Below are positions 30,697 to 59,388 of a DNA stretch of 64,000 nt, one piece after another. The first letter of the stretch is position 1; every line of letters begins with the position of its first letter. Source of the DNA: Terriglobia bacterium (GTDB lineage Bacteria; Acidobacteriota; Terriglobia; Terriglobales; Acidobacteriaceae). The translations under genes and the position numbers were made by a program. The notes beneath the pieces are model-generated. The model was given only the letters and a program-made list of their open reading frames with translations, was not told the DNA's origin and made no database searches. The stretch covers positions 1 through 64,000 of the forward strand of contig JAIQFH010000012.1 of the NCBI GenBank assembly GCA_020073385.1, read 5' to 3'.

Positions 30697-30769
30697 GTGG
30701 CGTCCCCTGTCCATGTTTCCGACTATCCACGAACCATGCAGCTACAACTCCGGGACGAACAACGATTGT

Positions 30770-31520: not shown

Positions 31521-31611
31521 TCCTAGAATTTACCGCACCGGCAGTTTGCAGTCGGCCTGATATAGCGCCATATTCACACACTTCCGGGAGCCGGGCTAGT
31601 ATGGTTGCGAA

Positions 31612-32691
31612 ATGGGCGCCCGCAAAATCGTGCACGTGGACCTAGATGCGTTTTACGCTTCCGTCGAGCAGCGCGATGATCCCCAACTACGCGGCAAGCC
31701 GGTGGTCGTGGCCTGGAAGGGCAACCGCTCTGTTGTCTGCGCGGCATCGTACGAGGCCAGGAAGTTCGGCGTCCGCTCGGCCATGCCAGCGATGCGAGCG
31801 GAGCGCTTGTGTCCCGAGGCAGTATTTGTCGCTCCGGATTTCACACGGTACCGGGCCGTCTCGCGCAGTGTGGGGGAGATCTTCAAGCGCCATACCGATC
31901 TGATCGAGCCACTATCGCTCGACGAAGCGTACCTCGATGTCACGGAGAACAAGACAGGGTTACCGACCGCGACTCTCGTAGCGCGCACGATCCGGGAGCA
32001 AATCCGTCAGGAGTTGAATCTTACGGCTTCGGCAGGAGTCGCGCCCAACAAGTTCCTGGCCAAGCTGGCCTCGGACTGGCGCAAACCCGATGGGCTTTTT
32101 GTCATTCAGCCCAATGAGGTAGATGCGTTTCTTCTGCCCTTGGAGGTTGGACGCCTGCCCGGAGTCGGCAAAGTCACTGGAGAAAAACTTGCGAAACTCG
32201 GAATACATACGGTGTCAGATTTGCGAAAGCTAAATCTATCGGTCCTCGAACGCGAGTTCGGCAGATATGGCCGGCGCCTGTACGAGCTCGCGCGCGGAAT
32301 CGACGACAGTGAGGTGGTTCCGGACCGGCCTACGCAATCGATCTCTGCCGAAGATACCTTCGAACATGACGTTCTTTTGGCTGAAACTGAACCCATGATC
32401 CGGCGGCTCGCAGAACAGGTTTGGACCGCCTCGCGTAAAGAGTCGCGGATTGCGCGCACGGTAGTTCTGAAGCTGAAGACGAGCGAGTTCAAGATTCTCA
32501 CGCGCAGCCATACCCCAGGCTCACCTCCCTGCTCCTGCGAAGAACTGACAGACATCGCGCTGGGTCTTCGGGAGCGAGTGGAACTCAGTCCACAGCAGCG
32601 CTATCGGCTGGTTGGGGTGGGTTTGAGCAACTTTCAGGGTCGAGAACTTGATGCTGGGCAGGCGGACCTTTTCCCACATGCAGAACTGTAA
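31612..32691 (+). CDS. dinB: DNA polymerase IV (Y-family)
   Basis: A 359-residue error-prone translesion polymerase. HVDLDAFYASVEQRDDPQLR holds the first catalytic Asp; EPLSLDEAYLDVTENKTG is the invariant S-L-D-E-A-Y-L-D motif. SAGVAPNKFLAKLASDWRKP and the helix-hairpin-helix thumb (LPGVGKVTGEKLAKLGI) follow, then the little-finger domain. The C-terminal QADLFPH resembles a beta-clamp binding peptide. Divergent from nothing; SOS boxes not searched. It sits near an SRAP gene, another DNA-damage function. Confidence 0.95.
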   Translation: MGARKIVHVDLDAFYASVEQRDDPQLRGKPVVVAWKGNRSVVCAASYEARKFGVRSAMPAMRAERLCPEAVFVAPDFTRYRAVSRSVGEIFKRHTDLIEPLSLDEAYLDVTENKTGLPTATLVARTIREQIRQELNLTASAGVAPNKFLAKLASDWRKPDGLFVIQPNEVDAFLLPLEVGRLPGVGKVTGEKLAKLGIHTVSDLRKLNLSVLEREFGRYGRRLYELARGIDDSEVVPDRPTQSISAEDTFEHDVLLAETEPMIRRLAEQVWTASRKESRIARTVVLKLKTSEFKILTRSHTPGSPPCSCEELTDIALGLRERVELSPQQRYRLVGVGLSNFQGRELDAGQADLFPHAEL

Positions 32692-32757
32692 AATGGGAGT
32701 GGCGTGTCGACTCCTCATGCAGATCCAGTTCTCATCATCTGGCCCTCTATCAAGACT

Positions 32758-33465
32758 TCAGAACAGTGTCGGAGCAGTCTCCTTGACGGGAACCTCCCGA
32801 GCGCATTCCTGGTCATCATTCTCAGGACGATTGACACGTGAACTTACCGGATACTTCTTCATCAGGCTGGCGTCGAAAGGTTTCAGACAGTCGGCAATGC
32901 GTGTCACGTCAGTCACGCCTGGGTCTAGCCACAGCTCGTAGTCATCTCCGCTGACAATCGCCGGCATGCGATCATGCACGCTAGCGATCAGTGGATTCGG
33001 CTTGGTCGTAAGGATCGTGCATGTTTCGACGATTTCTCCGGCCGGATCTCGCCATCGCTCCCACAATCCAGCGAAGGCAAACACTGAGCCGTCCGCCATG
33101 CCGAAATTGTAGGGCTGCTTCTCTTTGGAACTGATTCGCACCCATTCATAGAAGCCGTCCGCTGGAATCAGGCAGCGGCGATGTTTCATGGCGTCACGGA
33201 AGGCTGGTTTGTCCGCGGCAGTCTCGGACATCCCGTTGATGGTCTTGAATCCGATGGACGCGTCTTTGGCCCAGTACGGGATGAGTCCCCAGCGAGCCAA
33301 TCCAAAAGTGCGCTTCGGTTCCTTCGGGTGCTGGCGGACGATAGGAATCGGCTGCGTCGGAGCGATGTTCCAACGGGGCGTCCAAGACACATCTTCATCT
33401 TCATCGAAACCAAAGCGGTCTCGAAGATAGCGCTCCTTCGCGGTGAGCCGATAGCGTCCGCACAT
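32758..33465 (-). CDS. SRAP/HMCES-like abasic-site-crosslinking protein
   Basis: A 235-residue SOS-response-associated peptidase (YedK) that forms a covalent thiazolidine with abasic sites in single-stranded DNA. Cys2 (MCGRYRL) becomes the N-terminal nucleophile; WNIAPTQPIPIVR, PADGFYEWV and VHDRMPAIV supply the Asn, Glu and His of the active site. It converges with dinB; the two may serve the same damage response. Confidence 0.95.
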   Translation of the reverse strand: MCGRYRLTAKERYLRDRFGFDEDEDVSWTPRWNIAPTQPIPIVRQHPKEPKRTFGLARWGLIPYWAKDASIGFKTINGMSETAADKPAFRDAMKHRRCLIPADGFYEWVRISSKEKQPYNFGMADGSVFAFAGLWERWRDPAGEIVETCTILTTKPNPLIASVHDRMPAIVSGDDYELWLDPGVTDVTRIADCLKPFDASLMKKYPVSSRVNRPENDDQECAREVPVKETAPTLF

Positions 33466-33467
33466 GG

Positions 33468-33728
33468 TTATGCTTGCTTACTGCGCCTTGCCGCTTTCCA
33501 TTTCGCCCACCGTGCGCGCTGGGCCGCCGCAATTCTCTTGCGTGCTGCAGCTGACATGGTTCTCCGCTTCTTGCCGAGTGTTTGAGCGCGCCCGACTCTT
33601 GTGGCCCCTCCGCGCACCCCACCGAGACCGCCGAGCGCCTTCAGAGCTTCGTCCAGCTGTTCGATTCTCCTTTGCGCCTGATCCCTTTCCTGCTTCAGCT
33701 GCTGGACCACTTTAGCCAGGTTCGCCAT
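33468..33728 (-). CDS. Small lysine/arginine-rich protein (AAQRARWAK type)
   Basis: An 86-residue protein: N-terminal coiled coil (VVQQLKQERDQAQRRIEQLD), then the basic tail KRRTMSAAARKRIAAAQRARW. The tail motif recurs in acidobacterial proteins (from memory) and resembles the AT-hook/NUMOD-like DNA-binding patches. GAGAGGA before the start at 33728. Two bases from the SRAP start. Confidence 0.7.
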   Translation of the reverse strand: MANLAKVVQQLKQERDQAQRRIEQLDEALKALGGLGGVRGGATRVGRAQTLGKKRRTMSAAARKRIAAAQRARWAKWKAARRSKQA

Positions 33729-33838
33729 TGATTCCTCTCGGGCAGGAATTGTAGCAGCCCGCGCTAGATTCACGGCTCTCGCCCCTTAAGCATGCCCCAC
33801 CACTTTCATTTTTGACCAACTCATCACGAGGAATTGCC

Positions 33839-34098
33839 ATGAGACTTCGCACCAATGAACTGTGCCCAATCCATAGATCTGTTACTTGCTGTGGTCGGGA
33901 AGTGCTCCCCAGACCCAAGCTGATCGACTTGGAATCCAGAGGATTGACGATCCGCACCACCCGCGAGGGTATCGGGAACTGCGATCGCCAGCCGAAATGC
34001 GCAAACTGCAAAATCGAAAAATTAGAGAGCAAGGCGGGATATGCGCCATCTGCCACGAAGATTTTAAGGATTACAACGACGTGGTCCCCGATCACAAA
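33839..34098 (+). pseudogene. HNH endonuclease, 5' part (split by the transposon)
   Basis: Start ATG with GAGGA upstream: MRLRTNELCPIHRSVTCCGR... A one-base shift near 33920 moves homology to the next frame, which reads RLGIQRIDDPHHPRGYRELR, then CAICHEDFKDYNDVVPDHK. The frame is cut at 34098, after the codon following the catalytic Asp-His, by the Tn7-like element. The gene resumes at 43899. Confidence 0.85.
34094..34098. repeat. Target-site duplication, left copy (ACAAA)
   Basis: Five bases directly before the TGTG left end of the Tn7-like element. Identical to the five bases after its right end. Confidence 0.95.
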
Positions 34099-34148
34099 TG
34101 TGGTTTTAAGCATATCTTTGCCGGATTTACCGCATAATGTTGCCGGAT
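34099..34148 (+). repeat. Transposon left end with TnsB-like binding sites
   Basis: Two direct repeats, GCATATCTTTGCCGGAT (34110-34126) and GCATAATGTTGCCGGAT (34132-34148), 22 bp apart, agree at 14 of 17 positions. A weaker third copy (GGATAACCTTGCCG, 34208-34221) lies further in. Position and spacing fit TnsB sites. Confidence 0.85.
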
Positions 34149-34311
34149 GGAGTGCTGCAAGTAGTGGGTTTGTGCGAAGCGGTGTACCCCACGGGTTCAG
34201 AGATAAAGGATAACCTTGCCGCGATTGCGGATGTGAGCCTGTGCCGCCTCTGGCTGGGTGCGAGCATAATATTCACGTTCTGATCTGCGGCCTATCGAAG
34301 GTGAGTTCGGG

Positions 34312-36759
34312 ATGATTAGCAGAGAGTCGTCACAACCCGTTCCGTTCGAGGTTATCGATGGAGAGTGCAGGCGGCTGCGGGAGGAGAATGCTCGTCTGCG
34401 GCAGCTTCTAGCGCAGCACAGTATCCCGGTTCCGCCAACTGAAACAGTGATGCAGCCCTGTGTCAAACCTATCGACGTGCTGTCTTCGGACGAGAGGCAG
34501 GGACGGGCCAGAAAGAGAATCGCTCTTTTCCGGAGCCTTTTTCGAGGAAGAGAAGATGTCTATGCGCGACGATGGGAGGGCCCAGACGGACGGTCGGGCT
34601 ACTCACCGGCAGCCCAGAAAGATTGGAAAGCGATTAACAGGAGCAGGCCGGAAGAGCGGAAGAAAGTCGATCAGAAGACGCGGAAGTATTTTCCGCTGAC
34701 CGATTCTGTGATCGAGAATCATCTGCTAGGGAAGGAAACCATCGGTGTATATCCGCTGTTGGTGGACGAAACTTGCTGGTTTCTGGCGGTGGATTTCGAT
34801 AAGAAGACTTGGCAGGAAGATTCAAGCGCATTCATGGATACGTGCCAGGAGATGAACGTGTCGGCAGCGTTGGAGCGTTCGAGATCTGGAAAGGGCGGAC
34901 ACGTCTGGGTCTTCTTCGACCATCCAGTCCCAGCGATCACCGCGCGCAAGCTCGGCTGTGCCATTCTGACCCGCACGATGGAACGGCGTCACCAACTCGG
35001 GCTGGATTCTTACGATCGTTTTTTCCCGAGCCAGGACACGATGCCCAAAGGCGGCTTCGGAAACCTGATTGGGCTCCCGCTTCAAGCGGTACCGCGGAAA
35101 GCTGGCAACAGTGTTTTTGTCGATACAAACTTTCAGCCGTACCCGGATCAGTGGGCGTTCCTGGCGGCACTCGAACGAGTGCCGATGGTGGTTGCCGAGG
35201 AAATCATTGCCGAAGCACAACGCAAGGGCGATTTGATCGGCGTCCGGGCTAGTGTCACGGACGACGAGGACAGGCAAGACCCATGGACTCTTCCGCCCTC
35301 CAAAAAATGGCTGAACCGACCAATCCCAGGGCCGTTGCCGGAGAGCGTTCAGATCGTACGTGCGAACCTCGTGTACGTGGAGAAGAAGGGCCTTCCATCT
35401 GCCATGTTGAACCGGTTGCTCCGCTTGGCAGCGTTTCAGAATCCCGAGTTCTACAAGGCTCAGAAGATGCGTCTCTCAACGTACGCAAAACCGCGCGTCA
35501 TTGCCTGTGGTGAGGATTTCGCAGAGCACGTAGCTTTGCCACGAGGCTGCCTCTCGGAGATCGTCGCCGTGCTTGAAGATCACGGGATCCGCCCAGAAGT
35601 ACGCGATGAACGATGTGCGGGCACACCCATCGAAGCGGAGTTCCAAGGCGACCTACGGCCGCTGCAACTGGAAGCTGTCGCCAAGATCACACGGCATGAC
35701 GAAGGGATCCTGTGTGCGCCGACGGCTTTCGGGAAGACCGCTGTCGCCGCATGGTTGATAGCGAAGCGCAAGGTCAACACGTTGGTCATGGTTCACCGCC
35801 AACAGTTGCTCGATCAATGGCACGAGCGATTGGCCATGTTCCTGAATCTGCCAGCCAATGGGATTGGGCAGATCGGCGGTGGCAAAGTGGACCGGACCAA
35901 ACAGGTGGATATTGCGGTCATCCAGAGCTTGCATCGCAAAGAAGAGGTGAAGGATTTTGTCGCCGAGTATGGTCAGGTGATTGTCGACGAGTGCCACCAC
36001 ATCTCCGCGTTTACCTTCGAGCAGGTTATGAAGCAAGTGAAAGCTAAGTACGTCGTTGGTTTGACGGCGACACCCACACGGAAAGACGGCCACCATCCGA
36101 TCATCTACATGCAATGCGGACCGACCCGATTCGGTATGAGCGCCCGCACGATGACCGAGAACACTCCGTTCGAGCATAGGGTGATTCCTCGTCACACCGA
36201 GTTTCGAACACGAGCTGACGTTGCCGACATCACGATCCATGACATCTACTCTGGGCTCGTCGGTGACACAACTCGCAACGAGCTGATTGCCGCAGACCTC
36301 ATCCATGCCGTTAAGGCGGGTCGCTCTCCGCTTCTCCTGACCAGCCGAACCGAGCACCTCCAGTATTTCGCGGCAAAGCTGAATGGTGAGATCAAGCACG
36401 TCTTTGTCCTTAAGGGTGGCATGAGGAAAAAGCAGCGGCGTAGCATCGCTGAAGGTCTCGCATCTGTGCCAGAGGATGAGCCGCGCGTCATTCTGGCGAC
36501 TGGCAGCTACATCGGCGAGGGCTTTGATGATGCGCGTTTGGACACGCTATTCCTTGCGATGCCTATTTCGTGGAAGGGAACGCTCCAGCAATACGTGGGG
36601 CGGTTGCACCGCCTTCATGACAACAAGCGGGTGGTGCAAGTCTATGACTACGTGGATGACTGGGTTCCGATGTTGGAACGGATGTATGAGCGCCGGCTGA
36701 AGGGTTACGGTGCAATCGGATACACGATCGACCAGGAAACTCCTGCAGCAGTTGCTTAA
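34312..36759 (+). CDS. TOTE-type archaeo-eukaryotic primase fused to SF2 helicase
   Basis: An 815-residue cargo protein. Residues ~15-38 are a leucine-zipper-like coiled coil (CRRLREENARLRQLLAQ). Residues ~65-330 form a TOTE-type AEP primase domain: WFLAVDFDK gives the D-x-D metal pair (161/163) and GKGGHVWVFF the conserved His. Residues ~450-800 form a UvsW/RAD25-like helicase: APTAFGKT (motif I), VDECHHIS (II), LTATPTRKD (III), YVGRLHRLHD (VI). TOTE systems are predicted conflict or mobile-element maintenance systems; here the gene sits at the left end. No clear ribosome site (AAGGTGAG). Confidence 0.85.
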   Translation: MISRESSQPVPFEVIDGECRRLREENARLRQLLAQHSIPVPPTETVMQPCVKPIDVLSSDERQGRARKRIALFRSLFRGREDVYARRWEGPDGRSGYSPAAQKDWKAINRSRPEERKKVDQKTRKYFPLTDSVIENHLLGKETIGVYPLLVDETCWFLAVDFDKKTWQEDSSAFMDTCQEMNVSAALERSRSGKGGHVWVFFDHPVPAITARKLGCAILTRTMERRHQLGLDSYDRFFPSQDTMPKGGFGNLIGLPLQAVPRKAGNSVFVDTNFQPYPDQWAFLAALERVPMVVAEEIIAEAQRKGDLIGVRASVTDDEDRQDPWTLPPSKKWLNRPIPGPLPESVQIVRANLVYVEKKGLPSAMLNRLLRLAAFQNPEFYKAQKMRLSTYAKPRVIACGEDFAEHVALPRGCLSEIVAVLEDHGIRPEVRDERCAGTPIEAEFQGDLRPLQLEAVAKITRHDEGILCAPTAFGKTAVAAWLIAKRKVNTLVMVHRQQLLDQWHERLAMFLNLPANGIGQIGGGKVDRTKQVDIAVIQSLHRKEEVKDFVAEYGQVIVDECHHISAFTFEQVMKQVKAKYVVGLTATPTRKDGHHPIIYMQCGPTRFGMSARTMTENTPFEHRVIPRHTEFRTRADVADITIHDIYSGLVGDTTRNELIAADLIHAVKAGRSPLLLTSRTEHLQYFAAKLNGEIKHVFVLKGGMRKKQRRSIAEGLASVPEDEPRVILATGSYIGEGFDDARLDTLFLAMPISWKGTLQQYVGRLHRLHDNKRVVQVYDYVDDWVPMLERMYERRLKGYGAIGYTIDQETPAAVA

Positions 36760-36812
36760 CTCTTTACCACTCCTGAACCAAGAGCGGAAATAGCACGGCC
36801 GAGAGATACCTC

Positions 36813-36851
36813 TTGCGCTTCAGTGTATGTGTGCTATTGTGCACCTATACA
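36813..36851 (+). promoter_or_regulatory. Possible promoter/operator before the DUF6788-like gene
   Basis: TTGCGC and TATTGT hexamers 16 bases apart, overlapped by a weak dyad: TGTAT (36824-36828) and ATACA (36847-36851), with the palindrome GTGCAC (36839-36844) inside. The likely transcript start falls a few bases before the ATG at 36851, so translation may be nearly leaderless. Suggestive only. Confidence 0.3.
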
Positions 36852-37186
36852 TGAACAGAAGAGAAACACCCGAGGATGTGCGGCGCTGGTTCCGGGAGGC
36901 CACGCGGGATCTTTGGCCGATCGCAGTGGGATCTGTGTCCTTGCGGAAAAGTCCCTGCATTCGGGAACGTTGCCAGCTTTGCGAGACGGGTCAGGGGCAT
37001 TCCAGCTACGCTTTGTATGGTCGCAACAGGAATCAGCGATTTTCCATCTATGTACCGGACGATTTGGCTGCGGACCTGAAAAAGGCCATCCGAAACGGCC
37101 GCAACCTTCAGAGGCTTATGACTGAGGCCGGTCGGAGGTATGCATTGGCGCGAAAGAATGAGCGCGATTTGCACATGCGGAAATAG
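36851..37186 (+). CDS. DUF6788-like small protein
   Basis: A 111-residue protein with a short Cys-containing start (SPCIRERCQLCETGQGHSSY) followed by LYGRNRNQRFSIYVPDDLAA, which is the DUF6788 pattern of a beta hairpin then 'YVP.DL', and a helical RNLQRLMTEAGRRYALAR. An ATG at 36827 would add eight residues. DUF6788 genes recur beside transposases; a DNA-binding or repressor role is a guess. It sits between the cargo helicase and tnsAB. Confidence 0.6.
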   Translation: MNRRETPEDVRRWFREATRDLWPIAVGSVSLRKSPCIRERCQLCETGQGHSSYALYGRNRNQRFSIYVPDDLAADLKKAIRNGRNLQRLMTEAGRRYALARKNERDLHMRK

Positions 37187-37224
37187 CGAACGGCGTCCTT
37201 GACACTCTGGCGGTGGAGGGCAAC

Positions 37225-39759
37225 GTGCTCAATGAGGGCGGCTTTCTCGACTGGTGTGGGCGGCTCGGATTGACAGCGGAGGCCCGCGCGACGGTTGCTG
37301 CGGCACGATCGCATAATCCTTCACGCCACGTTGGAGGCGGTCGTCACAACGTCTCGGGACGTTATCCCAGCCGCAAGATGGGCATGACCATCCAGTTTGA
37401 AAGTCACAGGGTCGAACTGCCCTTCGTCTATGGAGCGGAGCATGATCCCCAGGTGCTGGAATACTACGACCAGCCACCGCCTATTCCACTCGCCTATCAC
37501 GCGGCAAACGGAAAACGCTTGTCCGTGATGCATACCCCAGACTATTTTGTGCTTCGCCAAGATTCGGCCGGATGGGTGGAATGCAAAACTCCGGAAGATC
37601 TCGAGAAGCTAGCCATCAAGAGTCCACACCGCTACCTCCGGGATACTGATGGCAACTGGCGTTGTCTCCCAGGAGAAGCATATGCCTCCCCACTGGGCTT
37701 GACCTATAGACTCTGGTCTTCAGCCCAGATTGATTGGGTTCTCCAAAGAAACCTTCAGTTCTTGGAAGATTATCTGCGATGCGCTTCGCCGGACGTCGTG
37801 GAAGTGATTAATCCGGCCATCAAAACAGCCGTCGAAGTAGAGCCTGGGATCTTTCTACATGAGTTGTTGGAGAAGGTTCGCGGTGTTGCAGAACCCGACG
37901 AGATTTACTTGCTGATCGCAAGCGGCAAGATCTACGTGGACCTGACTGCAGCTGCGATTGCTGAGCCAGATCGAGTCCGACTTTTCGCCAACGCAGAACT
38001 TGCCGAAGCGTACGCCCTTGCTCACCATGGATCAGATAACAGCGAGGCGATCTATGGAGCCGCTAGTGCTCCGCATGGTGAAACACTGAACATACACGGT
38101 GAGGCTTTCCGACTCCTGGCAGCGGCCAGTGAGAAGGATTTGGCCGCCGCAAACCGGCGCTTCGATCTTGTGAAACGCCGCCTCGCAGGGGAGGGGCTTA
38201 CGCACTCTGTCCCGGCGAGGACGATGCGTCTTTGGATAGCACAGTACCGGCTTGCGAAAGAGCAGTACGGCAGCGGATATGTGGGCTTGTTGCCAAAAAC
38301 CAGTAAGCGGGGAAACCGTACGCGCCGCCTGCCCGACGAGTCGAGTGATTTGCTTATCCAGTTTGTGGAGAACGACTACGAGAACCTCAGGCAAAAGACG
38401 AAGGTTGCCTCCTGGGCAGCGCTGAAGCAAAAGTGCAACGAGTTTGGCGTCCTCGCACCGAGCTACGTTACGTTCTGTGCTGCCACACGAGAGCGTCCAG
38501 CGTTCGAACAAACATTAAGGCGGCAAGGCCGACGTGCCGCCTATGCGCATGCAGTTTTCCACTTCGAGTTGGAACGGACTACGCCGCGCCACGGGGACCG
38601 CCCCTTCGAGATCGGCCATATCGATCACACGCAATTGGACGTTGAAGTGGTTTGCTCCCAGACAGGCCGTCCACTCGGGCGGCCGTGGATGACGATTCTC
38701 ACTGATGCCTTTTCACGCCGCTGCCTTGCCCTTTACCTGACGTTCGACGACCCAAGTTACCGATCCTGCATGATGATTCTGCGTGATTGTGTTCGACGCC
38801 AAGGTCGCTTGCCGCAGACTATCGTCGTTGATGGCGGCCGCGAGTTCGAGAGCACATACTTCGAGACGCTCCTGGCCCGTTATGAATGCACCAAGAAAAC
38901 GCGGCCACCTGCGAAGGCCCGCTTCGGCTCCGTCTGTGAGCGGCTCTTCGGTACCACAAACACCCAGTTTATTCACAACCTGCAGGGCAACACTCAGATC
39001 ATGCGCCAGGTTCGGCAGGTCACAAAGAGCAACGCCCCTGTGGGCCAGGCGGCATGGCCTCTTGGTTGTCTTCATGACTATCTTTCGTCTTTCCTGTTCG
39101 AAATCTACGACACCATCGAGCATCCGGCTCTCGGGCAAACGCCGCGAGAGGCTTATTTCGCGGGTTTCGAAAGCTCGGGCGCTCGTACGAACAGATTCAT
39201 CGCCTACGATCAGGCGTTCTTGATGGCTACGCTCCCGACAACTCAGCGCAGGAGTGCGAAGGTGGTGTCCGGCCGCGGGATCATTATTAACTGCGTGCGT
39301 TACTGGGCAGAGGCATTCCGTGATCCCAGTGTTGAGAATCAAGATGTTCAGGTCCGGTATGACCCTTTTGATATCGGCACTGCTTATGCCTTCGTGAGTA
39401 ATTGCTGGACGGAATGTCACTCGGAGCACTATGTGGCGCTGCAGGGCCGCACAGAGAAGGAACTCATGTTGGCGTCGAAGGAGATACGGCGTCGAAGCCA
39501 GCTACACTCCCGAGAACGATTCACTCTGACCGCTCGGAAACTGGCGGACTTCCTCGAATCAGCTGACGCCGAAGAGAAGTGCCTTCTTCAGCGATTGCGC
39601 GACAGGGAGAGTAGCTCACTTCGACAAAATGATCTCATGCTTATTCCGGCTCCGGCCTCCGGGCAAGAGGCATCTTGGGCGTCAGAGACCGAGACTGCAA
39701 CTTCGCTGACATCAGTACCGATGCAAACTGAAGCCACCGCGGTTTATGGAGACTTCTGA
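37225..39759 (+). CDS. tnsAB: TnsA-TnsB fusion transposase
   Basis: A single 844-residue protein. Residues ~40-190 are the TnsA endonuclease (restriction-like fold): IQFES, then HTPDYFV and WVECKT give E, D and E-x-K. Residues ~300-420 are winged-helix DNA binding. The DDE integrase core has GHIDHTQLD, IVVDGGREF and CERLFGTTN (Asp, Asp, Glu near 467, 536, 572). A C-terminal tail is suited to TnsC contact. TnsA cuts the 5' ends and TnsB the 3' ends, giving cut-and-paste movement. The GTG at 37225 follows GGAGGG; 37213 is an alternative start. Confidence 0.93.
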   Translation: MLNEGGFLDWCGRLGLTAEARATVAAARSHNPSRHVGGGRHNVSGRYPSRKMGMTIQFESHRVELPFVYGAEHDPQVLEYYDQPPPIPLAYHAANGKRLSVMHTPDYFVLRQDSAGWVECKTPEDLEKLAIKSPHRYLRDTDGNWRCLPGEAYASPLGLTYRLWSSAQIDWVLQRNLQFLEDYLRCASPDVVEVINPAIKTAVEVEPGIFLHELLEKVRGVAEPDEIYLLIASGKIYVDLTAAAIAEPDRVRLFANAELAEAYALAHHGSDNSEAIYGAASAPHGETLNIHGEAFRLLAAASEKDLAAANRRFDLVKRRLAGEGLTHSVPARTMRLWIAQYRLAKEQYGSGYVGLLPKTSKRGNRTRRLPDESSDLLIQFVENDYENLRQKTKVASWAALKQKCNEFGVLAPSYVTFCAATRERPAFEQTLRRQGRRAAYAHAVFHFELERTTPRHGDRPFEIGHIDHTQLDVEVVCSQTGRPLGRPWMTILTDAFSRRCLALYLTFDDPSYRSCMMILRDCVRRQGRLPQTIVVDGGREFESTYFETLLARYECTKKTRPPAKARFGSVCERLFGTTNTQFIHNLQGNTQIMRQVRQVTKSNAPVGQAAWPLGCLHDYLSSFLFEIYDTIEHPALGQTPREAYFAGFESSGARTNRFIAYDQAFLMATLPTTQRRSAKVVSGRGIIINCVRYWAEAFRDPSVENQDVQVRYDPFDIGTAYAFVSNCWTECHSEHYVALQGRTEKELMLASKEIRRRSQLHSRERFTLTARKLADFLESADAEEKCLLQRLRDRESSSLRQNDLMLIPAPASGQEASWASETETATSLTSVPMQTEATAVYGDF

Positions 39760-40910
39760 TGACAGTTGGTCTGTCTCGAAAACTGAGCGGTCCTGAATTA
39801 TGTCTCGAACGTTTTCGCTCTTACACCGTGGCACACCCTCGGCTTGTCGAAGCCAAAGAGACGCTGATGAATGCGATAAAGGGAGCTGAGCCGAATTCGC
39901 TCATTTTCGTGTTTGGCCCGACTGGGGTCGGTAAGACAACTCTGCGCTTGAAGATCGAGCAACTGATCGCTTCGGAACTCTTGAGCGAACTCCGCGACGA
40001 TCTTACGCGGGTTCCAGTTGTCAGCGTTGAAGCAGTCGCTCCCGAGTCCGGCAGTTTCAACTGGCGTGACCATTACACGCGTCTCCTCCACGAACTTGAC
40101 GAGCCTCTGATCAACCGTAAGCTGCATCGACACGCAGAGGGAGCGTCTCAGGGATCTATCCTGCGCTTCATGCCAGCGTCCAGAGCCGTCGGGTCCGAAT
40201 TCCGTTACGCGGTGGAGCAGGCTATCCGCTATCGCCGGCCTGTTGCGGTCATGATTGATGAAGCCCAGCACCTCGGCAAAATTGCTTCAGGTCGCCGCCT
40301 TCTCGATCAATTGGACGTTATCAAGTCGATCGCCAATCAAACCAAGACCGTACACGTTTTGCTCGGCACTTACGACCTGCTCGCCTTTCGCAATCTGAAT
40401 GGGCAACTGAGCAGGCGAAGTGTAGATGTTCACCTCGCTCGTTACCGCGCCGAAGATTCGGACGATCGACAAACTTTCATCAATGTAGTGCAGTCATTCG
40501 AGAAGGAGCTTCCGTTTGACGAGCCGTCAGATCTTCTGAGCGAGTGGGAGTTCTTATACGAGCGGAGCGTTGGTTGCGTCGGCATCTTGAAAGAATGGTT
40601 GGTGAGGGCTGCCACAGCGGCGTCTCGAAAGGGTAGCCGAAAGTTGACAAAGGCCACTCTTGAATCGCAGGCATTGTGCCTTGCCCAATGCGAACAACTA
40701 CATAGGGAAATTACCGACGGCGAGCTCAAGCTATGTGAGCAACGCGAGGCGATAACACGCTTCCGTGAAAAGCTCGGCTTGAGCTCCTGCGGAACAGAGA
40801 GAACTGACCCGATGCCGCCAGCCTTACTGGGCCGGCTCCGGAGGCCAGGCCAGCGAGTTCCGACACGTGACGCAATTGGACGAATGAATGCAAGTGCAGC
40901 CACTGTTTGA
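39759..40910 (+). CDS. tnsC: TnsC-type AAA+ ATPase
   Basis: A 383-residue TniB/TnsC-type regulator that links target selection to the transposase. Walker A is FGPTGVGKTT (residues ~52-61), Walker B VAVMIDEAQH (~163-171); VLLGTYDLLAFRNLNGQLSR carries sensor 1. Its ATG overlaps the tnsAB stop (TGATG) and its end overlaps tniQ by 23 bases, so the three core genes are one translationally coupled operon. Confidence 0.93.
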   Translation: MTVGLSRKLSGPELCLERFRSYTVAHPRLVEAKETLMNAIKGAEPNSLIFVFGPTGVGKTTLRLKIEQLIASELLSELRDDLTRVPVVSVEAVAPESGSFNWRDHYTRLLHELDEPLINRKLHRHAEGASQGSILRFMPASRAVGSEFRYAVEQAIRYRRPVAVMIDEAQHLGKIASGRRLLDQLDVIKSIANQTKTVHVLLGTYDLLAFRNLNGQLSRRSVDVHLARYRAEDSDDRQTFINVVQSFEKELPFDEPSDLLSEWEFLYERSVGCVGILKEWLVRAATAASRKGSRKLTKATLESQALCLAQCEQLHREITDGELKLCEQREAITRFREKLGLSSCGTERTDPMPPALLGRLRRPGQRVPTRDAIGRMNASAATV

Positions 40911-42792
40911 TTCGTGGACCATCTCGCGCTCCCCGCTTCCTCGGAGGAGCCTTCTTTACTCGCTTGAGCCCATTGGTGTTGGTACTGCGTTTGTCGAAAG
41001 CTTGAGCGGCTACGTTTCCCGGCTCGCTGAAGCCCATTCCGTGAGCGTCGGAGACCTTATGGGACTGCTTTCAGACGTCCCCAATCCAAAGGGTGCACTC
41101 GTTCCCGCGACGGCCAAGGCTGGCAGACGCGGAGGACATGGATTTCGAGTTTGCGGCTATACCGTGAATGGCGTTACCGACCGTGCGATCACGTGGGTCC
41201 ATGCTCTGGAAGTGGCAACGAGCCGCCATGACCTGCAGTATCTGACTCTCGTTCCGTTTCGTCGCGCGCTGCCTGATCATTTGTTTCATCGTTACAGGGC
41301 GTGGTGCTCGCTGTGCTACGAGCACTGGCGATTGAACGGCCAAACCGTCTACGAGCCACTCCTCTGGGCAATCAAGACATCATCCCATTGCTCAGTACAC
41401 CAGCGGCCGCTTCGTCACGATTGTCCTCACTGTGGCCGGTTACTGAATCCACTCGGTGTCTTCGCGCGGCCCGGATACTGCGAACGGTGTGGCGGTTGGC
41501 TTGGTTCACCACGTGCCGAGTGGAACAAGCCACAACCCGGCGATGAGGAGCAGACGTGGACTTGTACGCAGATTGGAAGTCTGCTAGCGATGCTTCCCTC
41601 GATCGACCCCGAGGCTGCTCGGGAGTCGCTTCGCCGAACTCTCACCGCTTATCTTGAAGAAGTTGCGGGCGGGAATATCCTCGCTTTCGTAGAGTACACG
41701 CGATGCCCTGGTCCGGGGCTGCATGGTTGGATTGCCGGTGCGGCAGTCCCTCGGATCGAGAACCTTCTGCGAATCGCCCGACACTTAAACGTTCCGATTG
41801 CGAGCTTCTTCGCTCCGGCTGGACCGACATCAGCCGAGATTGCTGCCGCCGGGCAAGCCGTTTCCGTGTGTAGCAAACATCGTCTTTCCTCATCCCGACG
41901 TCGAAGTGAGATTCGACGAGCCCTTCTGGCAGCGCTTGATGCTGCCGTTCCCTCCACGGTAATAGGCGTCGCACGCAGACTGGGTTACACGACCACCGAC
42001 AGCCTTTATAGAGACGCTCGGGCGCTTTGCTACAAAGTAACGGCCCGATATCGGCGGTCGCACCGTTCGAATAAACCGGGAACGCCCAAGGCTAACAGGA
42101 TTCAAGCGAGGGAGCTGTTGGAGCGATCTCTCAACTCGGCTGAACCAATATCAGTCCACAGGATCGCTGCAAGCCTGGGGCAACGGAGCGATAAACACCT
42201 TCGAGGAGACTTTCCAGAGTTGTGCACAGCAATCACACAGAAGATCGCTCAGATGCGGCACCGCCGCGTGGAAAAGATACGCCAGGTCCTGAGAGACGCC
42301 CTCGCTCAACAGCCAGTGCCGCCTCTCGCAGAGTTGAGCCGCCATCTCGGCTACGCGCATACGGGTGTTCTCTGGAGGCATCATTCTGATCTGTGCCGCC
42401 AGCTTAAGGCGAGCCGCCAGCACGATGTAACGAAGCGAAGGGCTCATGTGGAGAGGGTAGCAATGGCGGCGCTTGAGGAGGTGCCAGTGCAATCCTTACG
42501 CGCTGTCTGCAGACGCCTCAAAATTACAGTGCGGTACATGAGCGTGCACTTCCTAGCGATCGCGGGGCGCATCGTGGCGGAGCACCGCCGATCCGTTATG
42601 GCCGAAACCGCGAATCGACGCGCACTGCTGCTACGTCGCATTCCGGATATTACCGAGGAATTCCATAAGCAAGGTTTGTATCCTTCGGCAGGAAGAATCG
42701 TTGAGCGCCTTGGTGAGAGATTTCTTCGAGACCGGAAAACCATCGGCGTTATAGTTCGTGAGGCGCACAAGGCACTCGGCATACAGAGGTAG
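40888..42792 (+). CDS. tniQ: TniQ/TnsD-type target selector with C-terminal HTH repeats
   Basis: A 634-residue TniQ-family protein. The N-terminal TniQ domain (residues ~20-220) has FVESLSGYVSRLAEAHSVSV, WCSLCYEHW, HQRPLRHDCPHCGRLL and GYCERCGG zinc clusters. An XRE-like helix-turn-helix follows (WIAGAAVPRIENLLRIARHL). Residues ~345-630 consist of about five ~55-residue repeats with similar 'V..IA..LGY....L.RD...LC' patterns, like the DNA-binding tail of TnsD. It is likely the site-specific target reader. Confidence 0.9.
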   Translation: MQVQPLFDSWTISRSPLPRRSLLYSLEPIGVGTAFVESLSGYVSRLAEAHSVSVGDLMGLLSDVPNPKGALVPATAKAGRRGGHGFRVCGYTVNGVTDRAITWVHALEVATSRHDLQYLTLVPFRRALPDHLFHRYRAWCSLCYEHWRLNGQTVYEPLLWAIKTSSHCSVHQRPLRHDCPHCGRLLNPLGVFARPGYCERCGGWLGSPRAEWNKPQPGDEEQTWTCTQIGSLLAMLPSIDPEAARESLRRTLTAYLEEVAGGNILAFVEYTRCPGPGLHGWIAGAAVPRIENLLRIARHLNVPIASFFAPAGPTSAEIAAAGQAVSVCSKHRLSSSRRRSEIRRALLAALDAAVPSTVIGVARRLGYTTTDSLYRDARALCYKVTARYRRSHRSNKPGTPKANRIQARELLERSLNSAEPISVHRIAASLGQRSDKHLRGDFPELCTAITQKIAQMRHRRVEKIRQVLRDALAQQPVPPLAELSRHLGYAHTGVLWRHHSDLCRQLKASRQHDVTKRRAHVERVAMAALEEVPVQSLRAVCRRLKITVRYMSVHFLAIAGRIVAEHRRSVMAETANRRALLLRRIPDITEEFHKQGLYPSAGRIVERLGERFLRDRKTIGVIVREAHKALGIQR

Positions 42793-42826
42793 GAAAAGGC
42801 TTGTTGGGATCACTACGAATCAGTTT

Positions 42827-43384
42827 CTATGAACTGGAGCGCCGCGTGTACTTCGCCAGGAGAGAGTCCATATCATCTCCGACGCCGTAGCCAAAGTCAT
42901 GACTGATCTCCCGCACACGATCAAGCCGCGCGATGAAGCTATCCTGGCCATTGGCGGGAAGCGTGTGAGTCGACTTGAGGGCTTGCTCGAACATGCGGAC
43001 CAGGGCGTCGAAAAACGTTTCCTCCTGATAACCGATATCCTGACAGTATCCTGCCGCTTGCTCGCAGTAGAAAACCATCAGTTCGGTTAATCCCGCGGGA
43101 TTGCCCACGGCCTTTTTGTAATGGGAGATGGCCTGCTTCGCTTTTGAAACAGATGTGTCCTGATTGCGAAACGGGTCAGGCCAGAGCCAGCGATCGAGGG
43201 TTTCCTTGTACGGCTCTAACACGTCCTCGCCTAGGCCAAAGCGGGCATGAAAGAATACCTGGTTGTCTTTGTGCGCGGCGTAAAGATCGTGAAGCAAGTC
43301 CAGGAGTCCTCCCCGATCGAAAGCGTACAGCTTGTCCTTGACATCGGTCCAGGTGGGTTGCGATTTCAATCTCTGCTTCGCCAT
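42827..43384 (-). CDS. DUF6155-like protein (transposon cargo)
   Basis: A 185-residue helical protein starting MAKQRLKSQPTWTDVKDKLY. It includes SKAKQAISHYKKAVGNPAGL, ELMVFYCEQAAGYCQDIGYQ and LDRVREISHDFGYGVGDDMD, a pattern I associate with DUF6155 (function unknown). It follows the CcbP-like gene on the same strand, both transcribed inward from the right end. No toxin motif is evident. Confidence 0.65.
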   Translation of the reverse strand: MAKQRLKSQPTWTDVKDKLYAFDRGGLLDLLHDLYAAHKDNQVFFHARFGLGEDVLEPYKETLDRWLWPDPFRNQDTSVSKAKQAISHYKKAVGNPAGLTELMVFYCEQAAGYCQDIGYQEETFFDALVRMFEQALKSTHTLPANGQDSFIARLDRVREISHDFGYGVGDDMDSLLAKYTRRSSS

Positions 43385-43440
43385 GTGCGTGTTCGATCCA
43401 CCATACAGAGGCCTGTCGTAGCTTTCAACGTCAGTGTGAG

Positions 43441-43809
43441 TCAGAGGCAGCAGCCCTGCGACAGCCAATAGTGCCAGTCACCGACGGCCTCAATCGTTGA
43501 TCGATCCGCATCGACAGGAACCAGTTGGGAGAGAGGAACCGCCACATTGTGGCCCTGCCAGCGAATTAACACCAGCATATCGTGGACACATGAATCTTCA
43601 GGCGCCAAGCGGCGGACTTCGACCGTTTCACCCTTTCGGACCGGCGACACCACCTTGGATGCGATACAGCGCGCCATGAAGAGAAACCTGATTTCGTTCT
43701 CCAGGTAGTAGTACCACCCGAGCGCTTGCTCTTCCGGCCCGTACGCATCGACGACTATTTCATTCTGTATCCGCTCTTCTCGTATCGGATCCTTCTTCGA
43801 TTTCCCCAT
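43441..43809 (-). CDS. CcbP-like calcium-binding protein (transposon cargo)
   Basis: A 122-residue protein matching the cyanobacterial calcium-binding protein CcbP along most of its length: REERIQNEIVVDAYGPEEQA, LGWYYYLENEI, FMARCIA, EDSCVHDMLVLIRW, VAVPLSQL and VGDWHYWLSQG. Acidic residues rather than EF-hands bind Ca2+ in CcbP. Its promoter must overlap the transposon right end, whose palindrome begins 36 bases upstream of the start. Role in the element unknown. Confidence 0.8.
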   Translation of the reverse strand: MGKSKKDPIREERIQNEIVVDAYGPEEQALGWYYYLENEIRFLFMARCIASKVVSPVRKGETVEVRRLAPEDSCVHDMLVLIRWQGHNVAVPLSQLVPVDADRSTIEAVGDWHYWLSQGCCL

Positions 43810-43844
43810 CGCAGGCTTGATTTCCTCTACCCTCAAAAGGACAC

Positions 43845-43893
43845 GATTTAAAGCATAATCCTGCCAAACGGCAACTTTATGCTTTAAATCACA
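43845..43893 (-). repeat. Transposon right end, palindromic
   Basis: Reading inward from 43893: TGTGATTTAAAGCATAAAGT, then TTGCCGTTTGGCAGG. A perfect 14-base inverted repeat (GATTTAAAGCATAA at 43845-43858, its complement at 43877-43890) has an inner TGCC-AAAC-GGCA stem. The outer site matches the left repeats at 14 of 17 bases; the inner copy points the other way. Confidence 0.85.
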
Positions 43894-43898
43894 ACAAA
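43894..43898. repeat. Target-site duplication, right copy (ACAAA)
   Basis: Directly follows CACA at the right end, identical to 34094-34098. Confidence 0.95.
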
Positions 43899-44006
43899 GA
43901 GCCCAAGGGGATGGGAGGAGCGTGGAGAGATGACCATCCGGACAATATCCAAGCAGTCCATTGGTGGTGCAACGAAGAGAAGGGATCAACCAGAATGGAC
44001 GATTGA
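43899..44006 (+). pseudogene. HNH endonuclease, 3' part (split by the transposon)
   Basis: Continues the gene cut at 34098 in the same frame: EPKGMGGAWRDDHPDNIQAV then HWWCNEEKGSTRMDD and TGA. DDHPDNIQ and HWWCN supply the N and second H of the HNH fold. The exact frame match across the element is the proof of insertion. Confidence 0.92.
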
Positions 44007-44188
44007 CGGCCCATAAGCCGTAGATCTACTTGGCACCCTGGCAGGGACACTTGTCGCTCTCGGATTGTGTGTCAGCAGTGTGCGTGATTGGGAACAAAGG
44101 ACCCTCGTGGCGGATGTCGGGGCGTCACTTGAGGGCAGTTGCCCCAGCTTGTGGCCCGTGGCGAGTGGTAAGCTGAATCATTGCTCAA

Positions 44189-44353
44189 ATGAGTGAAGGC
44201 TATCTTCGGCGTTACACAGATCTGACGGCGCTAATATATCTGCTGCACAAGCGGAAGATCACCTTGCTGGATCCGGCGTCCTGGGACGACAAGAACGATT
44301 CGTACTACCTTGCCAAGTACAAGGAAAAGCGCAAACTGAAGTCCGTGCTAGCT
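44189..44353 (+). pseudogene. DUF2971 protein, N-terminal fragment
   Basis: About 55 residues (YLRRYTDLTALIYLLHKRKI, TLLDPASWDDKNDSYYLAKY) match the start of DUF2971 proteins. After KLKSVLA the homology ends where the convergent membrane gene begins (~44350), so the gene's last ~200 residues have been lost by rearrangement. The ~180 bases between the HNH remnant and this start hold nothing I can call. Confidence 0.65.
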
Positions 44354-45458
44354 CCGCAAGACTCGCACCGAATCTTCCCGTCCACTCGAGAGGCCAGCAC
44401 AAGCTCGCATACTCCACCCACTCACGCATCGCCAGCCCGATGCCGGGCGCGGCCACAACCGCAAAGATAGGAATGTTTCGTGCCGAGAACAATGCCAAGT
44501 GCGACCAACTCAGGAGCAGAAGCACCTGGACGCATCTTCCCTTGCCTCCGTGCCAGACTGCCGCCGCGATGGCCAAGACAAGCAGCGTCTCAAAATACGC
44601 CGCAGTGAATGAATGGAAGTCGATCGACTGAAATTCACTGATGCGCTGGAGGTAGAACGATGCTCCGAGATACCGTGCAATGTGGAGGTGCAAGCGATAT
44701 CCATAGGGATTGACGAGGCTGGCCAGGGCGCACGAGACAGCCGTCCAGAGATACGGTCGCGCTCGGACCAACGCATTGCCTCTTCGACCGTGGAGCAGTT
44801 CTTCGGCCGCCGCTCCGATCGCATAGGTAACCAGCAAAATGATCCCGACGAAAAATCCTCCATGCAGATTCACCCAAGGCATCGTGAGTAGCGGCAGGAT
44901 CCAGAGGAGCACCGATCTTCGGTTCTTCTCAGTCCGGTTCAAGACGCAGCAAAATACCGAGGCAAACAGCGGGGTTACAAGATGTGGTCGCGCAAGCCAG
45001 TGTACGGTGCTTGCCGCCATTGCCAGCCCCGTCAGAACAATCGCGATCACTCGATGCCCAGATTCTTCCAGTGTGCTCCTGTAGACAAGGGCCGATGTGG
45101 CGCCCAGGAGCACCAGGCTCGCGAGAACAATTCCGGCCAAGCCAGAATGTCTGTGAACGACTGCCATCAGAACGTCTGAGAGCCACTCCCAGGCAAACCA
45201 GGGCTGGCCGGCCTTGGTGAATGAGAAAAAATCCGTCGCGGGGACTCGCCCGTTCTTCAATATCCATTCTCCAGTTCGGATATGCCATCCAGTATCGGAA
45301 TCGGCAAGCAGCCAGCCCACACCCGTCGTGCACCAGAACAGCACGAGGATTGGTGTCAAGAAAGCCAGATCGGAGAGCGATGGCATCAGAGAGATCCACG
45401 CTCCGCCCGGCAGGCGCGGAGCTTCGGCTGTCTCTGAGTATTCCTGCTGGGCATCCAT
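44350..45458 (-). CDS. Polytopic membrane protein, C-terminally truncated
   Basis: About 370 residues with nine or so hydrophobic segments (e.g. LTPILVLFWCTTGVGWLLA, GLAGIVLASLVLLGA, VNLHGGFFVGIILLVTYAIG). DSDTGWHIRTGEWILKNGRV and FSFTKAGQPWFAWEWLSDVL mark a family of large membrane proteins, possibly glycosyltransferase-like, that usually continue for 100-200 more residues. Here the frame runs into the DUF2971 fragment at ~44350, so the tail is lost. Confidence 0.7.
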
Positions 45459-45467
45459 CTGAGTGGT

Positions 45468-45749
45468 TCACTCTCGGACGAAGGTCTCAATTTCGGAGAC
45501 ACGGGGATGGTCGCCATGCACTTCGGCAACACTGGGCACGGAACCAGGACTCCTTGATGAAGGGGTCGGATCGTGCCCGAGTCCCCTTTCTGACCATCGT
45601 CGATTGAAGACGTGGATTACCAAGGGCGTGCCTGTCGCCGCCGCAAGAAATGCCCCGCCCGGGTTAAGGTGAAGACCACCGCCAATTACGACGAAAAGGA
45701 ACAGAAACAGGCAAACAACCAATGAACCTTGCTTGATCTTCGTGAGCAC
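45468..45749 (-). CDS. Small membrane protein
   Basis: A 93-residue protein with one N-terminal hydrophobic helix (GSLVVCLFLFLFVVIGGGLH) and a second weaker segment, followed by a polar tail. GTG start with GGAGAAG upstream. Nine bases before the truncated polytopic gene, probably co-transcribed with it. No family recognised. Confidence 0.55.
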   Translation of the reverse strand: MLTKIKQGSLVVCLFLFLFVVIGGGLHLNPGGAFLAAATGTPLVIHVFNRRWSERGLGHDPTPSSRSPGSVPSVAEVHGDHPRVSEIETFVRE

Positions 45750-45784
45750 GGTGCTTCTCCAATGTTGCCGGGGCGGCGATTGCC

Positions 45785-46480: not shown

Positions 46481-46499
46481 GAAGGTTCCCTCCTTATAT

Positions 46500-48699: not shown

Positions 48700-48713
48700 G
48701 ACAGATCGTCGGC

Positions 48714-58350: not shown

Positions 58351-59388
58351 GTGCGTCCACACGGTCAGACCAAGCTAGGTTTCTTTCCCCTTCCTGCGGC
58401 CGAGGTGGTGCGCCTAAGGAATTGGCTCGCCTTCCCCGAGCAGTTCTCCGCGCTCGATCCCTGCGTCGGCGATGGGGCCGCCTTTGCTCAGTTGGTTCAC
58501 GGTGCGCGCGCACGCCCGTATGGTATTGAGATCGATGCCTATCGGGCAGAACAGGCGCGAGCGGGGGACATCGAGACGCTGCAGGCAGACACGATGGAGG
58601 TGCGCTGCGCGGCGGAATCGCTATCGTTGCTCTATCTAAATCCTCCGTACGATTGGGAAGCGGGCGCAAGTAATAACCAAAGACTGGAGTTCGTGTTTCT
58701 GGAGCATACCTATCGGTGGCTGAAGCCGACTGGTGTTCTGCTTTTTGTGGTCCCGCAAAATCGCCTGGCGAAGAGCGCCAGACTGCTGAGCGAACAATTC
58801 ACCGACTTGCGAGTGTACCGGCTCACCGAACCGGCCTGCCTGCAATTCAAGCAGATCGTTGTGTTGGCGTCTCGGCGCAAACGACATGTCCACCTCTCCG
58901 ACACCGCCTTGCTGGAAGGGACGCGATACCTAGAAAACCTGGCAGCACGGCCCGACCTTCCCCCTTTGAGCGGCACTCCCGACGTTAAATACGAAGTCCC
59001 GAGTTCAGAGCTAATCGTGTTGACCCATGCTGGGATTCCTTTGGATGAGGTGGAAGATCTGCTGTTCGAGTCAGCGGCCTACCGCCAGGCCAGCCGGTTT
59101 CTTCTCCCCAGGCAAAGGGATGTCTGCGGCCGGCCGCTAACGCCACTACACGGCGGACATGTGGGACTGCTCTGTACCGCGGGAATGCTGAACGGAGTGT
59201 TCGGAGAGGGAGAGGACCGACACATTGCTCATTGGCGTTCGGTGAAGTTCACGGATCATTGGGAAGAAGAGGAAGAGGATGGCACCAGGATCCTCCACGA
59301 CCGGGAACGGTTCTCGCACGAACTGACGCTGGTCTTCGCCAATGGAAGAACCCAGATTCTGACTCACGAGAAAAAGGAAGAACGATGA
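58351..59388 (+). CDS. N6-adenine-type DNA methyltransferase (DUF6094-like)
   Basis: A 345-residue protein. FSALDPCVGDGAAFAQLVHG is the SAM-binding motif, SLLYLNPPYDW the NPPY catalytic motif of amino methyltransferases, then VLLFVVPQNRLAKSARLLSE and VYRLTEPACLQFKQIVVLA. The C-terminal region may recognise the target. Such enzymes on plasmids give host-like methylation or regulation. GTG start, GAGGAGG upstream; TGA overlaps the next ATG. Confidence 0.85.
   Translation: MRPHGQTKLGFFPLPAAEVVRLRNWLAFPEQFSALDPCVGDGAAFAQLVHGARARPYGIEIDAYRAEQARAGDIETLQADTMEVRCAAESLSLLYLNPPYDWEAGASNNQRLEFVFLEHTYRWLKPTGVLLFVVPQNRLAKSARLLSEQFTDLRVYRLTEPACLQFKQIVVLASRRKRHVHLSDTALLEGTRYLENLAARPDLPPLSGTPDVKYEVPSSELIVLTHAGIPLDEVEDLLFESAAYRQASRFLLPRQRDVCGRPLTPLHGGHVGLLCTAGMLNGVFGEGEDRHIAHWRSVKFTDHWEEEEEDGTRILHDRERFSHELTLVFANGRTQILTHEKKEER

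What the first reader, a model, noticed from the sequence alone, without database searches (positions are those of the whole stretch)
34094..43898. Complete Tn7-like transposon with base-exact ends, duplicated ACAAA and an interrupted HNH gene
The element starts TGTGGTTTTAAGC and ends GCTTTAAATCACA. ACAAA flanks both ends. The HNH gene stops after ...NDVVPDH-Lys at 34098 and resumes EPKGMGGAWRDD at 43899 in the same frame; deleting the element plus one ACAAA restores it. This fixes the size at 9,795 bp. It is a recent or well-kept insertion with all core genes open, a compact unit for study.
Basis: seen in the sequence. Interest (0 to 1): 0.92.

Follow-up and report, generated by a model that had tools for sequence, protein, structure and literature searches.

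The report
Tn7-like transposon homing into nuclease gene
This is a complete Tn7-family jumping element sitting inside a small nuclease gene, and related elements in two other bacterial genera have entered the same gene at almost the same base, so the gene looks like a homing address rather than a random victim.

Summary
Window 34099-43893 is a 9,795-bp Tn7-like element (TGTG...CACA) with a perfect 5-bp duplication, ACAAA, inside an HNH-nuclease gene. Of 28 HNH places found in family genomes, 19 read across the junction; one unoccupied copy (L212) keeps the same upstream neighbours. Correction: the HNH gene also carries an upstream frameshift.

What it is: DUF6788, TnsA-TnsB fusion, TnsC and a 634-aa TnsD, with a primase-helicase in front and two small cargo genes behind. 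The transposition proteins are kin of CRISPR-transposon type I-B2, but no Cas effector gene or repeat array was found.

New: left ends of related but broken copies interrupt HNH genes in two more genera at the same codon, within 2 bp (3 of 28 places occupied). Six sister elements instead sit 58-60 bp before the Gly-(Phe/Tyr)-(Phe/Tyr)-Pro codons of a DUF6094 methyltransferase gene. Two copies 86.6% identical over their first 1.8 kb occupy one site of each kind. TnsD carries four tandem helix-turn-helix-like repeats, probably the address reader. Best reading: TnsD homing to an attachment site not found in the papers searched; TnsD binding is inferred.

The parts
33838..34098 (+). 5' part of the HNH-nuclease gene (target), itself broken by a frameshift between its N-terminal part and 33934-34098; last 5 bases (34094-34098) are the ACAAA duplication
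   Evidence: start taken from homologues
34099..43893 (+). the whole element, 9,795 bp
34099..34220 (+). left end: TGTG terminus and TnsB-site-like repeats at 34110, 34132 and 34208
34312..36759 (+). 815-aa primase-helicase (AEP-TOTE domain + ResIII/SF2 helicase)
   Evidence: adjacent to DUF6788 in six loci of one subclade
36827..37186 (+). DUF6788 protein, 119 aa; conserved gene upstream of tnsAB; function unknown
   Evidence: (below Pfam's cut-off)
37213..39759 (+). TnsA-TnsB fusion, 848 aa; E83, D110, K125 and D471, D540, E576 invariant in 9 relatives (assignment as catalytic is recalled)
39759..40910 (+). TnsC AAA+ ATPase, 383 aa
40888..42792 (+). TnsD-type TniQ protein, 634 aa, with four tandem HTH-like repeats at about residues 344-570
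42827..43468 (-). cargo: DUF6155 protein (below Pfam's cut-off)
43441..43809 (-). cargo: CcbP-like calcium-binding protein, 122 aa from 43809 (upstream limit not certain)
43845..43893 (-). right end: inverted pair of TnsB-site-like repeats (43853 +, 43870 -) and CACA terminus
43894..43898 (.). second copy of the ACAAA duplication
43899..44006 (+). 3' part of the HNH gene (EPKGMGGAWRDDHPDNIQ...), the presumed TnsD-side of the site
   Evidence: TnsD binding inferred
58351..59388 (+). unoccupied DUF6094 gene, the gene type used as address by sister elements

Best explanation
A complete TnsAB-TnsC-TnsD (Tn7-like) transposon that homes by protein recognition to a small HNH-nuclease gene. Shown: exact ends and duplication, open core genes, uninterrupted homologues, and left ends of two related copies in other genera at the same codon and in the same orientation. 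Inferred: TnsD reads conserved HNH codons with its array of four HTH-like repeats, recruits TnsC and TnsAB, and TnsAB cuts out the element and joins it with the right end facing the 3' half of the gene, splitting it. Sister elements with related TnsD proteins apply the same scheme to another gene: the right end lies 58-60 bp from the Gly-(Phe/Tyr)-(Phe/Tyr)-Pro codons near the start of a DUF6094 gene.
For: Three HNH junctions in three genera at +3, +2 and +1 nt after the same His codon, left end always on the 5' half. Fixed spacing to DUF6094 codons in six elements: 60, 59, 58, 60, 59 and, for the damaged L032, 59 bp. TnsAB, TnsC and the N-terminal part of TnsD match solved transpososome proteins (9bw1 E 6e-279; 8fcu E 1e-96; 8v32 E 8e-57). 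Four repeats match one another by profile comparison, probability 94.8-98.8% in six pairs. The TnsD C-terminus left in the G616 copy is 64% identical to the window's, against 38-44% in L032, L187 and L121. No Cas effector family among the element's proteins.
Against: TnsD binding is not tested. The G616 and G497 copies are broken: no right junction was seen, G616 gave no TnsAB match and G497 no TnsD match, so their duplications cannot be checked. They could in principle descend from fewer than three insertion events. No DNA motif common to HNH and DUF6094 flanks was found. Nine other relatives with a readable flank sit in neither gene. L050, a DUF6094 user, has a TnsD tail 53% identical to the window's over 36 aa, so C-terminal similarity does not cleanly follow the address.
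Confidence: 0.75

Rival explanations
1. Random insertion: the element transposes with little target choice and happened to hit the HNH gene.
For: Seven complete relatives with perfect duplications have seven different duplicated sequences, and several lie in unrelated places such as L033, L071 and L094. The HNH gene is dispensable-looking: often absent (found in 13 of 150 and 21 of 247 overlapping family samples) and often broken.
Against: Three HNH junctions within 2 bp of one another in three genera and the fixed 58-60 bp spacing at DUF6094 in six elements.
Confidence: 0.08
2. One old insertion: the HNH gene was hit once and gene plus element were then inherited or moved together into three genera.
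For: Window and G616 share the cargo pair CcbP and DUF6155. HNH genes are patchy and may themselves be mobile; some lie near genes like those of the window's PRTRC island (L057, L195).
Against: The three junctions differ by 1 and 2 nt; the G497 copy carries other cargo and is closest, of those compared, to L050, which sits at DUF6094 (86.6% over 1,797 nt), while it matches the window only over the HNH part and the left end (344 nt, 70%).
Confidence: 0.11
3. Targeting by another factor: a guide RNA from elsewhere or DUF6788 picks the site rather than TnsD.
For: The closest solved relatives are CRISPR-associated. DUF6788 is a conserved neighbour of tnsAB, and its profile weakly resembles ribbon-helix-helix DNA binders (best E 0.01).
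Against: No Cas effector family and no repeat array was seen in the element (a lone short guide would be missed). DUF6788 is present in elements at both kinds of site and at others, and three of nine DUF6788 loci without tnsAB stand beside transposase-like ORFs, named by eye.
Confidence: 0.06

Closest known systems
CAST type I-B2, PmcCAST (Tn7744)
   Same: TnsAB fusion, TnsC and TnsD are homologous; the TnsAB of Nostoc sp. 'Peltigera membranacea cyanobiont' 210A (L087) is 52% identical in its best segment. The solved TnsD (8v32, 9bw1) aligns at both ends of the family's TnsD profile.
   Different: No Cas genes or array seen. PmcCAST's TnsD targets a tRNA gene (PMC11406308, passages); here HNH or DUF6094 genes. 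The family's TnsD has extra HTH-like repeats between the two aligned parts.
Tn7 (TnsABCD, attTn7)
   Same: 5-bp duplication, several TnsB-like sites per end, TnsD-type protein; fixed spacing between insertion point and conserved codons. Tn7's TnsD site spans +23 to +58 (PMC2918618, passages).
   Different: TnsA and TnsB fused; no TnsE or glmS seen next to the element; right end an inverted pair of sites (arrangement in Tn7 recalled as direct).
Tn6022 / AbaR
   Same: Homing that inactivates its target gene, comM (PMC11406308, passages).
   Different: Tn6022 uses TniQ plus a separate selector (PMC10293859, passages); here one long TnsD and another gene.
TOTE conflict systems
   Same: The primase domain of the 815-aa protein matches Pfam AEP-TOTE, E 8.7e-94.
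   Different: TOTE stands for TPR, OB, TBP, Effector (PMC12458937, passages); no TPR or TBP family hit among the seven element proteins.

Membership tests
Tn7-like transposon | TnsA-type endonuclease plus DDE transposase TnsB | tested here: met
   Tn7_TnsA-like_N and rve above Pfam cut-offs in one protein; 9bw1 match
Tn7-like transposon | TnsC AAA+ regulator and TniQ/TnsD protein | tested here: met
   TniB and TniQ above cut-offs
Tn7-like transposon | 5-bp target duplication and TGT...ACA ends with repeated transposase sites | tested here: met
Tn7-like transposon | Mobility | not testable with these tools
   Only uninterrupted homologues were seen
TnsD homing protein | Recurrent, orientation-specific insertion at a conserved gene | tested here: met
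   Three HNH junctions; six DUF6094 ones. For two of the HNH copies only the left junction is known
TnsD homing protein | Direct binding to the attachment-site DNA | not testable with these tools
   Inferred from homology and fixed spacing only
CAST type I-B2 | Cascade (cas) genes and a CRISPR array in the element | tested here: not met
   No Cas effector family among the element proteins; no array among repeats of 20 nt or more. PADLOC's TniQ_IB and Cas-associated PrimPol models do hit TnsD and the primase
CAST type I-B2 | Homologous TnsAB, TnsC and TnsD | tested here: met
TOTE conflict system | TPR, OB and TBP partners of the effector | tested here: not met
   Only the primase domain was hit among the seven element proteins; OB folds were not sought otherwise

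The most novel reading that the evidence does not exclude
One protein-guided Tn7-like lineage without CRISPR uses two addresses: an HNH-nuclease gene, which it destroys, and the start of a DUF6094 gene, in the window part of a PRTRC-type island, which it leaves whole. This would be a two-pathway life style run by TnsD variants alone, with the HTH-repeat array as an exchangeable address reader.
Probability: 0.33. Interest if true: 0.8.

Novelty: new variant of a known kind. Interest (0 to 1): 0.62.

Why it matters
How Tn7-type selectors gain new DNA addresses is an open question with use in programmable insertion. Here is a set of sister elements whose TnsD proteins (the five DUF6094 users in alignment A3 are 34-54% identical to the window's) serve two mapped targets at fixed distances, with a visible candidate reader: four HTH-like repeats. 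Two copies 86.6% identical over 1.8 kb sit at different addresses, though both are broken. That makes address switching testable by swapping or trimming repeats. An attachment site inside an HNH-nuclease gene would also be, after comM, another case of homing that destroys its target.

Tried and rejected
Random single insertion was set aside once two further HNH junctions were found. A DNA motif common to the HNH and DUF6094 flanks was tested and not found (25 of 60 shuffles scored as high). blastn among the flanks (up to 400 bp) gave only short matches (best 17 nt, L091 and L121); the DUF6094 coincidence came from reading the printed flanks, then. DUF6788 as address factor: found in 25 of 33 rows of one clade and none of the other 60 tree rows, whatever the target; of the 8 clade rows without it, L032, L038, L039, L097 are truncated or have no room upstream and L105, L117, L076, L078 have room. 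Its model (mean pLDDT 83.7) had no PDB fold match at E<=0.001. The primase-helicase as rotating cargo: it lies next to DUF6788 in window, L049, L050, L068 (a 29-residue remnant at a contig edge), L075, L121, and upstream with a 4.6-kb gap in L072, but not in L033, L071, L073; so it is a stable part of one subclade. CRISPR guidance was judged unlikely. A viral-contig scan gave no relative. In plasmids 4,306 records match TnsAB but only 40 over at least 80% of it, the listed 20 being cyanobacterial and about 49-50% identical. A TnsD structure job had not finished at the last poll.

Rows left out: the TnsAB tree used 93 of 97 loci (L043, L048, L050, L051 too short). Alignment A2 used 24 of 26 DUF6788 loci (without L069, truncated, and L094, mis-framed). 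One search scored at most 2 first-look candidates per genome and at most 3, so their tallies are lower bounds. Gene names given by eye, without a search: CocE-type hydrolase (L033), metallophosphoesterase (L041), SRAP, DinB, transposase types in L150, L153, L157.
Full report
OBSERVATION. The element runs from 34099 (TGTGGTTTTAAGC) to 43893 (GCTTTAAATCACA), 9,795 bp, flanked by ACAAA at 34094-34098 and 43894-43898. A scan of window 29001-49000 for terminal repeats with matching 5-bp flanks gave this single pair. The left end has TnsB-site-like repeats at 34110, 34132 and 34208; the right end has an inverted pair at 43853/43870. One match to the transposase was found in the whole genome.

EMPTY SITE. 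The HNH left half was sought in family genomes (13 of 150 genomes; 21 of 247; the sets overlap) and the right half in the class (12 of 399). The 28 distinct places with a left half were classified: 19 run into the right half at the junction (17 without a gap, 2 with a 1-nt offset), 3 are occupied, 6 could not be scored (L063, L065, L197, L198, L201, L206). In L212 (G522) the uninterrupted gene follows DinB, SRAP and a 101-aa gene as in the window. The window's HNH gene has a further lesion: its N-terminal part and the part next to the element are in different frames but share a frame in L212. So the gene is doubly broken; the order of the two events is unknown.

GENES. 34312 primase-helicase (AEP-TOTE + ResIII), 36827 DUF6788, 37213 TnsAB, 39759 TnsC, 40888 TnsD, then DUF6155 and CcbP on the minus strand. 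DUF6788 and DUF6155 score below Pfam's cut-offs. By sequence the best PDB matches are 9bw1 for TnsAB, 8fcu/9bw1 for TnsC and 8v32/9bw1 for TnsD. A paper describes TnsABCD structures from the Peltigera cyanobiont 210A transposon, a type I-B CAST (PMC12585508, abstract read); that 9bw1 and 8v32 are those entries is recalled. Independently, the TnsAB of that organism's genome (L087) is 52% identical in its best segment. No Cas effector family and no repeat array was found in the element; PADLOC's TniQ_IB and Cas-associated PrimPol models do hit TnsD and the primase. Several class genomes have contigs of exactly the length of records named Acidobacteria or Terriglobia, so the host is probably an acidobacterium (inference).

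FAMILY. In a quick tree of 93 TnsAB rows the 25 DUF6788-bearing rows fall in one 33-row, mostly acidobacterial clade (support 87); none of the other 60 rows has it, also by a profile search of the loci. DUF6788 stands directly upstream of tnsAB. The primase-helicase is adjacent to it in six loci including the window.

RECURRENT HNH SITE. Searching 398 family genomes with TnsD (13 with matches) brought up G616, where a left end follows an HNH left half (75% identical): CACAG|TGTG. That copy is rearranged; it keeps pieces of the primase-helicase (79%), CcbP (70%), DUF6155 (79%) and a TnsD C-terminus 64% identical to the window's, and no TnsAB match was found in the genome. A further HNH search found G497 with CACA|TGTG; that copy, on a 4.3-kb contig, carries an AbiEi/AbiEii-like pair and the start of a primase-helicase, its HNH gene is also frame-broken, and no TnsD match was found in the genome. 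Relative to the same His codon the three insertions lie at +3 (window), +2 and +1 nt, left end always towards the 5' half. Right junctions of G616 and G497 were not seen (no right half in G616; two right halves in G497, both in uninterrupted copies).

DUF6094 SITE. The right ends of L188, L187, L121, L091, L050 lie 60, 59, 58, 60, 59 bp from the Gly-(Phe/Tyr)-(Phe/Tyr)-Pro codons at the start of a DUF6094 gene; L032, whose right end appears split by about 4.2 kb carrying recombinase genes, gives 59 bp if its outer remnant is taken as the end. L050's end is one base longer than usual and its duplication is imperfect (TTGAG/TTGAC); L091 has no matching duplication; L187's left flank is missing and L032's duplication was not established. 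PF19587 was confirmed by HMM for L121 and for the window's own gene at 58351; the others rest on tblastn to L121, 44-51% identical, over only 64-65 residues for L050 and L032. No right-end-like sequence (plus strand, up to 5 mismatches) was found at 58101-58360 before the window's DUF6094 gene, so that address looks free on the same contig, in an island with PRTRC genes. L050 (DUF6094) and L207 (HNH, G497) are 86.6% identical over 1,797 nt from the first base of each element: one lineage at two addresses, but both copies are broken and neither has a full TnsD. Nine other relatives with a readable flank (L033, L071, L073, L075, L041, L094, L047, L034, L035) are in neither gene; L075 and L041 sit 34 and 23 bp before a start codon, and L041 has a DUF6094 gene some 4 kb away.

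MECHANISM. Tn7's TnsD binds conserved glmS codons at +23 to +58 from the insertion point (PMC2918618, passages). The fixed 58-60 bp here fits a reader of similar or longer reach. The family TnsD profile aligns to the solved TnsD at both ends (profile 5-372 and 538-639) with extra sequence between; four units around residues 344-570 of the window protein match one another by profile comparison. After the first repeat the other 8 rows of alignment A3 share a W-R motif, W-W-R in 6 of them, that the window protein lacks; whether this goes with the HNH address is a guess. The DUF6094 users in A3 are 34-54% identical to the window's TnsD. No DNA motif common to both targets was found.

PRIOR WORK. 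Text searches showed no paper, by title or abstract start, on an HNH or DUF6094 attachment site; where more papers matched than were listed the rest were not seen. A large Tn7 survey reports 4 acidobacterial host species and does not contain the word HNH (PMC8649781, passages); the selector survey contains neither HNH nor DUF6788 (PMC10293859, passages). Target-inactivating homing is known for comM (PMC11406308, passages). Subscription papers and supplements were not searched.

CHANGES MADE ON CHECKING. The odds for the two-address reading went from 0.35 to 0.33, because both copies that carry it are broken; the identity range of the TnsD rows and the W-R motif counts were corrected.

VERDICT. 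A real, complete Tn7-like element of a known kind, at an attachment site not found in the papers searched, with a useful set of sister elements for studying how addresses change.

Noticed in passing
window 46500-47543 (-): A second AEP-TOTE primase gene (E 1.8e-24) lies outside the element, 2.6 kb to its right.
   Followed up: no
window 50938-63700: A PRTRC-type island: PRTRC protein B and ThiF (TIGR03737, TIGR03736), DUF6094 and a helicase.
   Followed up: partly
L150, L153, L157: DUF6788 genes without tnsAB stand beside transposase-like ORFs (named by eye) in 3 of 9 such loci, which hints at a general transposition helper.
   Followed up: partly
L032 1-13355: The element is cut on both sides by clusters of tyrosine-recombinase-like genes (by eye); tnsAB lacks its first 81 residues.
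   Followed up: partly
L121 12631-14583: The DUF6094 gene at the element's right end reads on into a CheA-like half; odd fusion or assembly joint.
   Followed up: no
L208 and G502:C3 (L204, L206): One genome (G502) holds four HNH places, so the target gene is multi-copy there.
   Followed up: no
L050 3743-5250 (-), L207: These sister elements carry an AbiEi/AbiEii-type pair near the left end; Pfam-confirmed in L050, by similarity in L207.
   Followed up: partly
L093, L136: DUF6094-like genes also lie within 10 kb of more distant TnsAB loci (30-32% identity); not checked against their ends.
   Followed up: no
window 10791-11125: Three tRNA-Arg genes in a row by ARAGORN; Rfam at its cut-off lists two of them.
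   Followed up: no
window 43845-43890 and right ends of relatives: The right end is a near-perfect inverted repeat of 21-nt arms with a 4-nt gap; similar in L033, L047, L071 and others.
   Followed up: partly
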